This document shows positions 21,301 to 28,139 of a stretch of DNA of 64,000 bases, one piece after another. Where the stretch lies: assembly GCA_019638675.1 (NCBI GenBank), contig JAHBTE010000001.1, positions 652,605 to 716,604 on the forward strand. The letters run 5' to 3'. Source of the DNA: Fimbriimonadaceae bacterium. GTDB taxonomy: Bacteria; Armatimonadota; Fimbriimonadia; Fimbriimonadales; Fimbriimonadaceae. The position numbers and the translations under genes were made by a program. The notes under the pieces were generated by a model. The model was given only the letters and a program-made list of their open reading frames with translations, was not told the DNA's origin and made no database searches. Each line of letters opens with the position of its first letter. The stretch's first letter is position 1.

Positions 21301-22347
21301 ATGAAGATAAAAGAGGATTACCGACGTTCGCTGGCGATTGCGTACCTCGTATCCGCGTTCAATACTCCGTTTTTTCTGCGGCTGGGTTTTTTCGCCTGCA
21401 TTGTGATGTTTATGGTTTCCGGGTTTGTGTTCGGCACTACTTTCTACTTTCTCCAACTGATTTCAAAACGAATCCGGATGCGGTCATTTGCGGTGCAGGT
21501 GGTTGTGCAAACCCTCCTGATCGGAATAAATATCGTCGTTTCGATGTGCATCGTAGGAATTGTGGGAGCGGCCGCGTTCTCTGGGGTTTCAGTGTTCAAT
21601 CCAGAGTTGTATCGCCAGTTGATTAGGATGATTCATCCAGGGATGGCGGCAGGAGCTATTGGACTGGGGCTGCTACTTGCACTGATCATCAATAGCGTTG
21701 TAGCGGTTTCTCAAAAACTCGGGCCAGGTGTTTTGTGGAACTGGATGACGGGCAAATACTATTCCCCGCGCGAAGAAGAGCTCGTCGTTATGTTTTTGGA
21801 TATGAAAGACTCCACGACTATTGCGGAACGGCTTGGAACACTGAAATTCAGTGCGCTCGTTCGCGATTTCTTTGCTGACCTAACCGAGCCGCTCCAATCC
21901 ACCGGAGCACGGGTGAGCCACTATATCGGCGACGAGGCGGTGATTTACTGGTATCCGTCAACCGCCGTCAAAAACGGAAATTGTCTCCGGCTTGTGCCGG
22001 CATTTCAAAAAGCTCTCTCCGCTCAATCTGCAGAATACGAACGCAAATATGGATTTGTGCCTGAGTTCAAAGCCGGAGCGCATATCGGGATGGTCGTGGC
22101 GACGGAAGTCGGCGAAGTGAAAAGTGAAGTCGTGTTTCATGGCGACACACTGAACACGGCGGCGCGAATTCAAGGGCTATGCGGTGAAGAAGGTGAGCAA
22201 TTTTTGATCTCAGGTGAGCTTGCCGAACGGATGGGAGAAGGTTTTGGGCTTAATCTCAGGCCGCTAGGTAACCGTTTGGTTAAAGGACGAGCGAAGGAGA
22301 TCGAAATCTTTGCCGCGTTGATTTCCAGTTCAAAGACTCCAAGTTAA
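21301..22347 (+). CDS. Membrane-bound class III adenylate/guanylate cyclase
   Basis: This protein has 348 residues. The first about 145 hold roughly three hydrophobic helices (LRLGFFACIVMFMVSG; TLLIGINIVVSM; IGLGLLLALIINSVV), so the N-terminus is membrane-embedded. The class III cyclase domain follows: metal-binding Asp residues in VVMFLDMKDSTT and HYIGDEAVIYW, Lys in PEFKAGAHIG, and the late block FHGDTLNTAARIQ. A Lys and an Asp in these positions suggest ATP and hence cAMP. ATG 21301 is 60 bp after the ARC gene. The 3' end overlaps the end of the convergent gene by 18 bp. Confidence 0.88.
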   Translation: MKIKEDYRRSLAIAYLVSAFNTPFFLRLGFFACIVMFMVSGFVFGTTFYFLQLISKRIRMRSFAVQVVVQTLLIGINIVVSMCIVGIVGAAAFSGVSVFNPELYRQLIRMIHPGMAAGAIGLGLLLALIINSVVAVSQKLGPGVLWNWMTGKYYSPREEELVVMFLDMKDSTTIAERLGTLKFSALVRDFFADLTEPLQSTGARVSHYIGDEAVIYWYPSTAVKNGNCLRLVPAFQKALSAQSAEYERKYGFVPEFKAGAHIGMVVATEVGEVKSEVVFHGDTLNTAARIQGLCGEEGEQFLISGELAERMGEGFGLNLRPLGNRLVKGRAKEIEIFAALISSSKTPS

Positions 22348-24021: not shown

Positions 24022-24166
24022 GCGCGCAGTTATTCTACGCCCTAGCCAGGGTGAATTTGCTGGAATATTGGTGTTTGGTGCGGGTCCTCTGTCCCGCTTG
24101 ATAGGTTTTGATCTGGCACAACTTCTCGGGGCTGGATTCAATCTGGTATCCTGCCCCTTCGTCTCT

Positions 24167-24252
24167 GGGCAGTTGCCCGAGTGGCCAATGGGAACAGACT
24201 GTAAATCTGTCGGCGCAAGCCTACGCAGGTTCGAATCCTGCACTGCCCACCA
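24167..24252 (+). tRNA. tRNA-Tyr (anticodon GTA)
   Basis: The acceptor stem pairs 24167-24173 with 24242-24248. The anticodon stem ACAGA/TCTGT encloses the loop CTGTAAA, giving anticodon GTA. The variable arm is long, as in type II tRNAs such as bacterial tRNA-Tyr. The T-arm has GGTTCGAATCC. The discriminator A is followed by a genomic CCA. Confidence 0.97.
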
Positions 24253-24268
24253 GAGAACAAATAATATC

Positions 24269-24343
24269 GCCCTCGTAGCTCAGCGGCAGAGCGTTCCCTT
24301 GGTAAGGGAGAGGTCACGAGTTCAATTCTCGTCGAGGGCTCCA
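24269..24343 (+). tRNA. tRNA-Thr (anticodon GGT)
   Basis: The acceptor stem pairs 24269-24275 with 24333-24339. The anticodon loop TTGGTAA gives anticodon GGT. The D-arm (TAGCTCAGCGGCAGAGC) and T-arm (GAGTTCAATTCTC) are standard. A genomic CCA ends the gene. It lies 16 bp after tRNA-Tyr, so the two are probably one transcript. Confidence 0.97.
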
Positions 24344-24367
24344 GTAGACTTATTTTGATTTGGTCGG

Positions 24368-24607
24368 GTGGTCAAGATGAAGCACAATCCCGAAACCTAC
24401 ACCCTCATAGATGCGAGACGTTTTTTAAGGCAAGGTCTACGAAACCTTCTTGAATTTGCAAGCGAAAACAAGGTTCCGAAGCGTATTGATTTTGGTCAAT
24501 TGCGTTGTGCCGTTGCCGATTTGGAGTATGTGGTTTCTCCGTGGCCTGATAAGAAAACTCTGTACTCTTCCGAGCTTGGATACTTAGCAATCAGAGAGAG
24601 AGAATAG
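24368..24607 (+). CDS. Short protein, single copy of module B shared with the next gene
   Basis: This protein has 79 residues (76 from ATG 24377) and no family I recognise. It aligns with residues about 175-250 of the next protein: LRQGLRNLL against LREALVRL, and SSELGYLAI against LSEFGHLAI, with the same spacing and a similar helical pattern. It may be a stand-alone immunity-type or adaptor module, or the remains of a longer B-A-B-A gene. GTG 24368 and ATG 24377 are both possible, and neither has a strong ribosome-binding site. It lies 24 bp after the tRNA-Thr. Confidence 0.6.
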   Translation: MVKMKHNPETYTLIDARRFLRQGLRNLLEFASENKVPKRIDFGQLRCAVADLEYVVSPWPDKKTLYSSELGYLAIRERE

Positions 24608-24679
24608 GAATTATTCTCCGCATTTGCAACTCTTTTTTCCGAGATCATTCACTCTACTAGTCGTGGACGACGGCTAAGA

Positions 24680-25999
24680 TTGCAACTCATTCGGCATCCT
24701 CAATTCGAAGAATTAAGGCTCCTGGGTAAGGACTTATTGAACTTAATGGAGCCTGATGAAATAGATCAACCGGAAAGCTCCCCTGTGACAGCGTTCTTTG
24801 CCCAAGCTAAAGTAGGTGAAGACAGAAGAGAAAAGTACTACGGGATTCTGAGAGCAGTATTCGAACTTTATGACCCTGATCGCTATCCTATCTGGCATCC
24901 TGAGACTAAGCGCAATTGGTTCAATAGCGACGATGAACCCTTTACGCCTGCGGAGTTTGAAGACTGGCTTTTCCAGTCTGGCGGGCATGACTGGTTTTAC
25001 GGCAGATACGCTTTTAGCAAAGATGAGAGTCATTCCGTTTATATGGATGGAGACGACCTAGATACTTTTATGACCTTCACGGTGGCAAACGAAGATGTGC
25101 CAAAGGCTCGTGAAATGATTTCAAAAATTGATGGCCTCTATCAAATTATCACTGAAGATCAGCCGGGTAACCCAGATGAAATTGCCCACATTTACGGAAA
25201 GCCCTTTATCAAACTGCAACAACCTCATTTCCTGGTTGCCGATAGATATGCACTGAGAGAAGCACTTGTCAGGCTGACTGATTCCAAGTTCAACGAATGG
25301 TGGAAAAGCGAGACTTGCTTTCTCAAACTGGAAGAAACTATTGAATGGCTTGCTCGGTTGTGCCTTTCTTGGGACGAAAGGCGAGACGATTTCCTGAGCG
25401 AATTTGGACACCTTGCAATTAAGCCGGACGAATTTGAGGAATTCGAGCAGTTAGCTGTGCTTTATGAGCAAATTCGAAAATCATGCTCGCGAAAAGAACG
25501 TTTTGAGTTTGTGAAAGATCCTCGTTGGGAGCAGTTGGTTGAAATAGGTCGTAATCTTTTGCCAAAAGTTGATATTCGGAGTTCTCCGGGGTTCAAGGAA
25601 AACACAACTTCCTTTACCATTTATGCTAAGCCAAAGGAGCAAGATTCGCTTCTGCCCCGCGAAGTAAATTTCTTTTTGATTCTTCGAAAGGTAGTTCGCT
25701 TGTACAACTCCACGGATTATCCGTACTGGTGCTACTTATGCCCGGTTTATCCCGAGGCAACTGCTTTCGAAAAATTTATTGTAAGGGAAAGTGGATACGT
25801 TACTGATCACGTTTCTTATGCCGACGACGAGAGTCATTCTGTATTCGTAAGGGCCGATGAAGCTGACTTGGAAATAGAATTCAGTCTTGAAAACTCCCAA
25901 CTACACCTAGCCAGTCAATTAGCAGAATCTCTAGATGGTCTGTACTCCATATTTCAGTACAAAAGTAAATCAGGCGAATTAGTTACCCTGACCACCTAA
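24680..25999 (+). CDS. Protein with duplicated module A around one module B, unknown function
   Basis: This protein has 439 residues, is acidic, and has no signal peptide or TM segment. Module A occurs twice, at about residues 5-155 and 275-430. The copies share HPQFEELRLLGKDLL/DPRWEQLVEIGRNLL, ILRAVFELYDPDRYPIW/ILRKVVRLYNSTDYPYW, the invariant block DESHSV and IDGLYQI/LDGLYSI. Between them is module B, also present in the short upstream ORF. The copies are far from identical, so the duplication is old. The start is TTG 24680 and is uncertain. Its position next to tRNA genes is a common site for accessory genes. Cytoplasmic localisation is inferred; no catalytic motif is recognised. Confidence 0.75.
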   Translation: MQLIRHPQFEELRLLGKDLLNLMEPDEIDQPESSPVTAFFAQAKVGEDRREKYYGILRAVFELYDPDRYPIWHPETKRNWFNSDDEPFTPAEFEDWLFQSGGHDWFYGRYAFSKDESHSVYMDGDDLDTFMTFTVANEDVPKAREMISKIDGLYQIITEDQPGNPDEIAHIYGKPFIKLQQPHFLVADRYALREALVRLTDSKFNEWWKSETCFLKLEETIEWLARLCLSWDERRDDFLSEFGHLAIKPDEFEEFEQLAVLYEQIRKSCSRKERFEFVKDPRWEQLVEIGRNLLPKVDIRSSPGFKENTTSFTIYAKPKEQDSLLPREVNFFLILRKVVRLYNSTDYPYWCYLCPVYPEATAFEKFIVRESGYVTDHVSYADDESHSVFVRADEADLEIEFSLENSQLHLASQLAESLDGLYSIFQYKSKSGELVTLTT

Positions 26000-26005
26000 T
26001 CTTTA

Positions 26006-26677
26006 CTAACTTTTTTCTGGGTCTAAGACGCCATTGCTACTCCAATCACGACTAGTAATCAACGCAAGCAACAGAGACCACACTATCGCAAATACAAGCC
26101 CATTGGTTCCATAAACCGAGTGCGCCCATGTTCCGAATGCCGCTCCACACACCAAGCCGGCCCAAAGCAGTGCGTAAGGAGCCCATTCCCACTTGGGAGC
26201 CCCTTCGAATATTGCGGCGATCCGTTGACCGCATTTCACAAGTGCGCCTGTCATGTACGTCAGCCCGATATTCGTTTCGCCCTTTTGCTGAAACACAGCG
26301 TTTTCTGCCCCCATCGCCATCACCATAGCCACCAAACCGACGTGCGGAATCTTGAATATCCAAGCAAACGTAGCAATTGCCAAGAGAACTGATACTGTAA
26401 GCAAAACGCGCGCGCGCTTACGGTTCTTTGATTTGCTTGCGATGAGCGTTCCGAGAATAACTCCGCCCACAAAGCAACCGATCACGCCACCCGCAATGAA
26501 CATATTCTCTACGTTATTTTTGCCGACTGCGACTCCTAGCCGTGTGGAGTTACCACTCATAAATGATATGAAGAACCCCTTGGTTGTGAGGAACCCCATT
26601 GCATCCACAAATCCAGCCAACGCCGATAGTGATACGGCAAGCGCAATGGATCGGCGATCGAGGGTTGTCATGAGCAC
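26006..26677 (-). CDS. DUF1275 (YoaK-type) membrane protein
   Basis: This 223-residue protein has six hydrophobic segments. The N-terminal pattern LSALAGFVDAMGFLTTKGFF followed by SFMSGNSTRLG is typical of DUF1275/YoaK. ENAVFQQKG and TYMTGALVKCG later in the chain also match. The family is a predicted inner-membrane transporter-like group of unknown substrate. It is convergent with the module A/B gene (6-bp gap) and divergent from rimO. Confidence 0.88.
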   Translation of the reverse strand: MLMTTLDRRSIALAVSLSALAGFVDAMGFLTTKGFFISFMSGNSTRLGVAVGKNNVENMFIAGGVIGCFVGGVILGTLIASKSKNRKRARVLLTVSVLLAIATFAWIFKIPHVGLVAMVMAMGAENAVFQQKGETNIGLTYMTGALVKCGQRIAAIFEGAPKWEWAPYALLWAGLVCGAAFGTWAHSVYGTNGLVFAIVWSLLLALITSRDWSSNGVLDPEKS

Positions 26678-26759
26678 TCCTAGTTTAGCGAATCGCGCGT
26701 GGATTCCTTTTATCAGGTCATCCTGCTGACGGATTCAATCCGATGCCAAAATAGAACCT

Positions 26760-28139
26760 GTGTCTGACCACAAAGGGAATCTCCGCATCATCACGCTGGG
26801 TTGCGCGAAGAACGAAGTCGACAGCGAAGAAATCGCGGGCGTTTTGCGTCAGGCCGGGCACTCGGTTAATGGCTCCCAATCCGCCGATGTCACCATCATC
26901 AACACGTGCGGATTTTTAGAATCAGCTAAACACGAATCCATTGCCGCGATCAAAAAAGCCGTCGCTGAAAAAGGCGGAGGCAAAGTGATTGTTGCCGGAT
27001 GCCTTGCTCAACGAATGGGGGCCGAACTCGCCCGACTCGCGCCCGGAGCGGATGGATACATCGGCGTTGGCCAGATGGGCAACTTCCACCAAGTGGTTCA
27101 ATCAGTATTCGGGCGCACTGAACCCCTGATTGATGTTGAACCGCCGCATCATAAGTGGGCTGATGTGACGACCAGAGCACGTACTGGTCGCCCATGGAGT
27201 GCGTACCTCAAAGTCAGCGAAGGATGTGACCACCGCTGCACTTTCTGCACAATTCCGTCATTCCGGGGCAACCACGCGAGCAAACCGATTGAGCGCGTTC
27301 TAGAAGAGGCTAGACAACTTGCCCGAACCGGATGCAAAGAAATCAACCTTATTGCTCAGGATGTCACTCAGTATGGATACGATCTGTACAAGGAGTTCAC
27401 GCTCCCCAAGCTTCTCCACCAATTGGCGGAAGTTGATGGTATCGACTGGATCAGAATTCTTTATTTCTATCCTAACCGCCTCACCGACGAAGTGATTGAG
27501 GCCATTGCAACCCAACCCAAGGTTTGTAATTACATTGATATTCCTCTGCAGCACGCTCACCCCGAGACTCTGCGCCGCATGAAACGCCCTTGGGATGGCG
27601 ACCGCTATCTCAAATTGTTCGAAAAAGTTCGTGCATCCATCCCGGATGTTGCGATTAGAACAACTTTTATCGTTGGCTTCCCTGGGGAAACGCAGTCTGA
27701 ATTCAACCATTTGATTGATTTTGTTCAAGCGGCAAAACTTGATCGGGTTGGGGCGTTCCAATTTTCTCGAGAACCAGGCACACCGAGCTACGATATGCCG
27801 GGCCAAGTGCCAAGTCGAACCAAAAAAGAACGGTACGACCGCCTGATGCGGGCCCAGACCCCCATATCTCTTTCCAAGAACAAAGCTCTGGTTGGGCAAA
27901 CAATTTCGGTGCTTGTAGATGAAGTCAAGGATGGGTGGATGGCCGGACGGAGCTACCGAGACGCACCGGAAATTGACGGCTGGGTTTACGCTCAAGGAAA
28001 CGTACAACCAGGTTCATTTGCAAAAGTCACTATCACTGAAGCCCAAGAACATGACCTGGTTGGTCACCTCTCTGGATTTACGCCCGCCCAAAATCCGCGC
28101 ATGATTCCGCTACAGATGGCGACCCGCGAACCCCGGTAA
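26760..28139 (+). CDS. rimO: Ribosomal protein uS12 methylthiotransferase RimO
   Basis: RimO is a radical SAM enzyme that methylthiolates an Asp of ribosomal protein S12. The product has 459 residues. The N-terminal MTTase domain has ITLGCAKNEVDSE and INTCGFLE plus VAGCLAQR, supplying three cluster Cys. The radical SAM motif is CDHRCTFCTIPSFRG (CxxxCxxC). A TRAM domain ends the protein (about 385-455). LGCAKNEVDSE marks RimO rather than MiaB. The start is GTG with no clear ribosome-binding site. A membrane protein gene follows after 6 bp. Confidence 0.96.
   Translation: MSDHKGNLRIITLGCAKNEVDSEEIAGVLRQAGHSVNGSQSADVTIINTCGFLESAKHESIAAIKKAVAEKGGGKVIVAGCLAQRMGAELARLAPGADGYIGVGQMGNFHQVVQSVFGRTEPLIDVEPPHHKWADVTTRARTGRPWSAYLKVSEGCDHRCTFCTIPSFRGNHASKPIERVLEEARQLARTGCKEINLIAQDVTQYGYDLYKEFTLPKLLHQLAEVDGIDWIRILYFYPNRLTDEVIEAIATQPKVCNYIDIPLQHAHPETLRRMKRPWDGDRYLKLFEKVRASIPDVAIRTTFIVGFPGETQSEFNHLIDFVQAAKLDRVGAFQFSREPGTPSYDMPGQVPSRTKKERYDRLMRAQTPISLSKNKALVGQTISVLVDEVKDGWMAGRSYRDAPEIDGWVYAQGNVQPGSFAKVTITEAQEHDLVGHLSGFTPAQNPRMIPLQMATREPR

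What the first reader, a model, noticed from the sequence alone, without database searches (positions are those of the whole stretch)
24368..25999. B-A-B-A locus of an unrecognised duplicated module pair next to tRNA genes
The 439-aa protein contains two diverged copies of a module (sharing ILR-x-V-x-x-LY-x5-YP-x-W and DESHSV) around a second module, and the short upstream ORF is a single copy of that second module. I recognise neither family. The position next to tRNA-Tyr/Thr is a common site for accessory genes, so an uncharacterised accessory or defence-related system is possible.
Basis: partly seen in the sequence, partly recalled or inferred. Interest (0 to 1): 0.62.

Follow-up and report, generated by a model that had tools for sequence, protein, structure and literature searches.

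The report
Broken tandem-repeat gene beside tRNAs
What looked like two odd genes beside two tRNA genes is one fast-changing accessory gene, built of two copies of the same unit and interrupted by a single stop codon; it may be a leftover protection gene against rival bacteria's toxins, but that is not shown.

Summary
The repeat is real, but the anatomy is simpler than reported. 24377-25999 is one reading frame, B1-A1-B2-A2: two copies of one ~260-aa B+A unit (27% identical, E=9e-23), interrupted only by a TAG at 24605 inside B1. A profile of intact B domains, built without B1, matches straight across that stop (E=2.2e-15). Two of seven congeners, one being Armatimonadetes bacterium Uphvl-Ar1, carry one intact B-A unit just after the same tRNA-Tyr/tRNA-Thr pair. 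The other five have other genes, or none called, there. So the window gene is a degraded, or mis-sequenced, tandem version of a narrowly distributed accessory gene (3 of 291 genomes of the phylum). B is a remote relative of SCO4402/DUF7945 small proteins, below their cut-offs. A matched nothing convincingly. One of seven SCO4402-like loci examined sits in the immunity-gene position of an Rhs toxin array, so a polyimmunity-type role is my leading specific but weakly supported function. Nothing links it to phage defence. Low interest.

The parts
24167..24252 (+). tRNA-Tyr (gta), upstream flank, present at this site in all 8 genomes of the genus
   Evidence: ARAGORN; congeners
24269..24343 (+). 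tRNA-Thr (ggt); similarity to the nearest congener stops 3 bases after its end
   Evidence: ARAGORN; blastn
24377..25999 (+). Whole B-A-B-A gene, one frame from ATG 24377 to TAA, interrupted by one TAG
   Evidence: translation; stop counts 1 against 32 and 41 in the other frames
24377..24745 (+). B1: first copy of the SCO4402/DUF7945-like module, contains the TAG
   Evidence: profile of intact B domains built without B1 matches 24377-24745 across the stop, E=2.2e-15; B1/B2 shuffle test
24605..24607 (+). In-frame TAG inside B1
   Evidence: TAG is an ordinary stop in the window (10 of the 37 longest non-overlapping frames)
24740..25183 (+). A1: first copy of the A module (LY-x5-YP-x-W, DESHSV)
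   Evidence: E=1.5e-56, member of the profile; A1/A2 shuffle test
25214..25573 (+). B2: second copy of the B module, intact
   Evidence: member of the profile; NF047838 E=0.054 over positions 7-114 of 119
25565..25993 (+). A2: second copy of the A module
   Evidence: E=1.1e-63, member of the profile
26006..26677 (-). DUF1275 gene: flank, not part of the finding; in congener G004 it lies directly next to tRNA-Thr, so the B-A-B-A gene lies between two ends that are neighbours there
   Evidence: Pfam E=6.2e-35

Best explanation
Shown: this is one accessory gene, not two. It encodes two tandem copies of a ~260-aa unit: an N-terminal B domain remotely related to SCO4402/DUF7945 small proteins (helical in low-confidence models), then an A domain of unknown family (alpha+beta in the same models). 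It starts 33 bases after tRNA-Thr, at a spot whose content changes between congeners, and in this genome it carries one nonsense codon in B1. Inferred: the gene is transcribed from the tRNA operon; the stop has recently inactivated it (or is a sequencing error); and its product was a small cytosolic protein that binds and neutralises a partner protein, most likely toxin domains of the Rhs-type systems that are common in this genus, the tandem form being a 'polyimmunity' protein. The anatomy I hold at about 0.95; the confidence given here is for the immunity-type mechanism together with the anatomy.
For: Anatomy. Intact single-copy relatives at the same site. Those relatives evolve under purifying selection (dN/dS 0.21; 0.145 in B, 0.248 in A) yet far faster than leuC next door (0.027; protein identity 75% against 98%). 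Cargo spot: similarity to the near congener G003 ends 3 bases after tRNA-Thr and resumes at 26744. B is related to SCO4402-like proteins: hmmscan E 0.011-0.054 for 3 of 4 sequences over nearly the whole model; hhalign score 38.4 against a maximum of 19.9 in 150 column-shuffles, control A module 13.8, reversed profile 12.3. One SCO4402-like protein lies in congener G006 between a 1346-aa Rhs protein and an Rhs-core fragment, same strand, where immunity genes lie. Rhs core matches in 8 of 8 genomes of the genus. Tandem immunity domains in one polypeptide, usually encoded without a toxin gene, are described as polyimmunity proteins in PMC3482391 (passages read).
Against: No toxin or Rhs gene was seen next to the window gene or the two intact relatives (judged from ORF translations). 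Only 1 of the 7 SCO4402-like loci that I examined (8 matched, one dropped as a probable chance match) is in an Rhs array; two (G141, G144) lie beside the same ABC-transporter-like and PhoU-like genes in both genomes (names recalled from sequence) and look vertically inherited. NF047838 scores are 12-16 bits against a cut-off of 50. No known immunity family matched. The A domain has no assigned family and the models are poor (mean pLDDT 51 and 57).
Confidence: 0.33

Rival explanations
1. Same gene, ordinary accessory protein: a fast-evolving cargo gene with a regulatory, ligand-binding or other role unrelated to toxins. The tandem copy has no special function and the stop marks its loss.
For: No toxin seen next to any of the three loci; SCO4402-like genes are also found in non-toxin contexts; the A2 part of a low-confidence model resembles generic ferredoxin-like folds, common in ligand-binding and enzyme domains.
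Against: Does not explain the one SCO4402-like gene inside an Rhs array, nor the tandem architecture; but neither of these is strong.
Confidence: 0.4
2. The TAG is a sequencing or assembly error and the gene is an intact ~540-aa B-A-B-A protein (compatible with either functional reading).
For: Only one stop in about 540 codons and no frameshift; everything after it is still a good match to the family.
Against: The assembly is good (3 contigs, 98% complete, 0.2% contamination); the reads are not available here; the nearest congener G003 lacks the gene.
Confidence: 0.25
3. Two working genes: a free B domain (24377-24607) and an A-B-A protein started downstream of the stop.
For: The downstream frame is long and intact.
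Against: B1 is cut in the middle of the domain; there is no start codon between the stop and TTG 24680 and, by eye, no clear ribosome-binding site in front of it; both relatives use one continuous B-A gene.
Confidence: 0.06
4. Programmed readthrough or recoding of the TAG.
For: The frame is open on both sides.
Against: TAG ends 10 of the 37 longest non-overlapping frames of the window; relatives have no stop there; recoding signals were not looked for in detail.
Confidence: 0.02

Closest known systems
SCO4402 family protein (NF047838) and DUF7945 (PF25656), models of about 120 positions
   Same: B aligns nearly end to end with the NF047838 model (7-118 of 119) and with PF25656 (3-116 of 123); shared closing helix with P-x-[WF].
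   Different: All scores are below the curated cut-offs; here the domain is fused to A and the pair is in tandem.
Polyimmunity proteins of polymorphic toxin systems (PMC3482391, passages read)
   Same: Several small domains in tandem in one polypeptide, no toxin gene seen alongside, differing content between related genomes, Rhs systems in every genome of the genus.
   Different: Neither A nor B matched a described immunity family in Pfam; no neutralisation is shown; the gene is broken.
tRNA-associated cargo genes
   Same: Lies directly after a tRNA; similarity between close relatives breaks at the tRNA end.
   Different: No integrase recognised among the ORFs around it (by eye), no tRNA-end repeat found on the far side.

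Membership tests
SCO4402 family (NF047838) | whole-protein score over the curated cut-off of 50 bits | tested here: not met
   12.4-15.9 bits, E 0.011-0.14
SCO4402 family (NF047838) | profile-level relation to proteins that match the family model | tested here: met
   hhalign 38.4 against shuffle maximum 19.9, 0 of 150; A module and reversed profile as controls 13.8 and 12.3. Of the 7 proteins in the comparison profile only one exceeds the family cut-off itself
SCO4402 family (NF047838) | free-standing ~120-aa protein (taken from the model length) | tested here: not met
   B is fused to A in all three genomes
DUF7945 (PF25656) | score over the gathering threshold of 27 bits | tested here: not met
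   15.4 bits, E=0.023, one of four sequences
Polyimmunity protein | more than one immunity-type domain in one polypeptide | tested here: inconclusive
   tandem B-A-B-A is shown; that B or A is an immunity domain is not
Polyimmunity protein | relative encoded as immunity gene beside a polymorphic toxin | tested here: inconclusive
   1 of 7 examined SCO4402-like loci lies between Rhs genes; the B-A unit itself does not in the three loci known
Polyimmunity protein | neutralises a toxin | not testable with these tools
   needs a bench assay
Known anti-phage defence system | match to a PADLOC model | tested here: not met
   0 families for 4 of 4 sequences at E<=5
Ferredoxin-like fold (A domain) | confident model with a clear structural match | tested here: inconclusive
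   model mean pLDDT 57; best VIA Z 6.7 (6nuk_A, designed protein, rmsd 3.6, 93 aligned), Foldseek no match at E<=0.001

The most novel reading that the evidence does not exclude
A new immunity-protein family of Armatimonadota: a SCO4402-like helical domain joined to a previously undescribed alpha+beta domain A, carried as a single promoter-less cargo gene behind a tRNA pair and expanded in tandem into a polyimmunity protein that has just been lost in this lineage.
Probability: 0.22. Interest if true: 0.42.

Novelty: new variant of a known kind. Interest (0 to 1): 0.22.

Why it matters
It corrects a mis-split gene and shows how a nonsense codon can make one repeat protein look like a two-gene locus. 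If the immunity reading holds, it would give SCO4402-like proteins a testable role (a search for 'SCO4402' in the held paper library returned 0 papers) and would add a lineage to polyimmunity proteins.

Tried and rejected
Phage or plasmid origin: tblastn of the window protein in plasmids, of the intact relative in plasmids and phages and of copy 2 in phages, and two viral-contig scans found no relative. A weak PHROG match of B2 (phrog_14937, unknown function, E=0.00056) was not pursued.

Known families for A: Pfam, NCBIfam, PADLOC and PHROGs gave nothing convincing; PDB sequence searches gave only chance-level matches or none. A relaxed search of 291 genomes with the A profile gave only short matches beyond the known loci, best E=0.0098 over 28 positions; I treat these as chance.

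Fold search: both AlphaFold models are poor, with only four or five rows in the alignment. The top Foldseek rows (NRPS condensation domains, aspartokinase regulatory domain) have TM-scores of 0.13-0.33 and are not evidence. Absence of a match says little.

Integrase/att hypothesis: the only direct repeat of 14 bases or more in 24150-26760 was one within the A copies. Age of the duplication: copies 1 and 2 are 32% identical and each is 25-29% identical to the congener proteins, so the duplication is old or the genes evolve fast; four sequences cannot order the events. Plasmid searches with two SCO4402-like proteins were empty. Paper searches on Fimbriimonadaceae/Armatimonadota and on Rhs immunity gave background only; listings seen.

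Not used as evidence: an eighth NF047838 match (G194, E=0.007, with a stop inside), dropped from the loci examined as probable chance.

Full report
What is in the sequence. Reading from the tRNA side, the frame is open from ATG 24377 to the TAA ending at 25999 except for a single TAG at 24605-24607; the other two + frames have 32 and 41 stops over 1620 bases. The 543-codon stretch from GTG 24368 falls into two copies that align along nearly their whole length, including across the TAG: blastp E=9e-23, 27% identity over 264 columns; none of 2000 shuffles reached the score for the whole copies, for A1/A2 or for B1/B2.

Held-out test of the stop. A profile of B built from the two congener proteins and copy 2 only, so without B1, matches this genome at 24377-24745, positions 1-123 of 128, with the TAG inside (E=2.2e-15). 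Both sides of the TAG therefore belong to one domain. TAG is an ordinary terminator here: it ends 10 of the 37 longest non-overlapping frames in the window. The ORF start given for the 439-aa protein (TTG 24680) is the first start-like codon after the TAG, without a ribosome-binding site that I can recognise by eye.

Relatives. tblastn in 61 genomes (own plus 60 relatives) found the gene in 3; a profile search in 291 genomes of the phylum found the same 3, and in the genus 3 of 8. Each has one uninterrupted B-A unit (267 aa in Uphvl-Ar1), beginning 27-29 bases after tRNA-Thr; the gap in the window is 33 bases (from coordinates). Upstream, tRNA-Tyr and tRNA-Thr are present together in all 8 genomes of the genus.

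The site. Behind tRNA-Thr the content differs: G003 (leuC 97% identical to the window's) has a 207-aa gene on the other strand; G004 has the DUF1275 gene directly; G001 a 189-aa gene (weak DUF4287, below cut-off); G002 other ORFs; G007 no ORF of 150 aa or more before rimO; G005 and G006 have B-A. Between the window and G003 the DNA is 99% identical up to 3 bases past tRNA-Thr and resumes at 26744. This is a replacement spot anchored on the tRNA end. No repeat of the tRNA end was found and I recognised no integrase among the ORFs.

Selection. Between the two intact relatives dN/dS is 0.21 (B 0.145, A 0.248), against 0.027 for leuC; protein identity is 75% against 98%. The protein is constrained, but evolves much faster than its neighbour. 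I did not test for positive selection.

Family of B. Three of four sequences match NF047838 (SCO4402 family) at E 0.011-0.054 over nearly the whole model, and one matches PF25656 (DUF7945) at E 0.023; all are far below cut-offs. To test the relation independently, I took SCO4402-like proteins found in the phylum with the NF047838 model (8 of 291 genomes; 7 used, one dropped as a probable chance match), aligned them and compared profiles: hhalign probability 85%, E=5.8e-6, 102 columns. The score is 38.4 against a mean of 11.8 and a maximum of 19.9 in 150 column shuffles; controls: A module against the same profile 13.8, reversed profile 12.3. B is thus a remote SCO4402-like domain. 'SCO4402' is in no paper of the library.

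Family of A. No library gave a convincing match. Two AlphaFold models (mean pLDDT 51 and 57) are too poor to rely on; predicted secondary structure is alpha+beta, and many of the weak structural neighbours of A2 are ferredoxin-like, at Z values that the tool itself calls common. I leave the fold open.

Function. The genus is rich in Rhs genes (core matches in 8 of 8 genomes, 2 in this genome, 19 in G006). One SCO4402-like protein of G006 (2826327-2826647) lies between Rhs-core matches at 2824967-2825200 and 2826967-2827200, on the same strand, after a 1346-aa Rhs protein (RHS_repeat E=1.7e-82): the place of an immunity gene. Against this, the other six loci examined showed no Rhs array in their stretches by a rough pattern count, and the B-A genes themselves have no toxin nearby that I could recognise. 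PMC3482391 (passages) describes polyimmunity proteins as tandem immunity domains usually encoded without toxin genes, which fits the anatomy. I therefore name an immunity-type binding protein as the leading specific mechanism, at about one in three; the unspecific rival, an ordinary accessory protein, is slightly ahead.

Verdict. Statements on promoter sharing with the tRNAs are inference from the short gap. Names such as ABC transporter, PhoU, DedA, leuC and rimO are recalled from sequence, not from a family search.

Noticed in passing
L035 (G006 C1 2817000-2836000), 4728-12707: Rhs array of Uphvl-Ar1: a 1346-aa Rhs protein followed by small ORFs and Rhs-core fragments, an orphan toxin/immunity-type layout.
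   Followed up: partly
window 24347-26743 against L020 (G003): A close congener has, in place of the B-A-B-A and DUF1275 genes, one 207-aa gene on the other strand, with sharp ends, one of them 3 bases past tRNA-Thr.
   Followed up: partly
window 21301-22347: Adenylate/guanylate cyclase-domain ORF (Pfam E=4.5e-8) between the AAA ATPase gene and leuC; in L009 and L010 those two neighbours abut without it.
   Followed up: no
L010 9010-11937: A 975-aa ORF and smaller ones lie between B-A and the DedA-like gene in G005 but not in G006, another difference at this spot.
   Followed up: no
L031 1450-1857 and L033 1483-1881 (G141, G144): SCO4402-like proteins kept beside the same neighbours in two genomes of one genus, a non-toxin context for that domain.
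   Followed up: no
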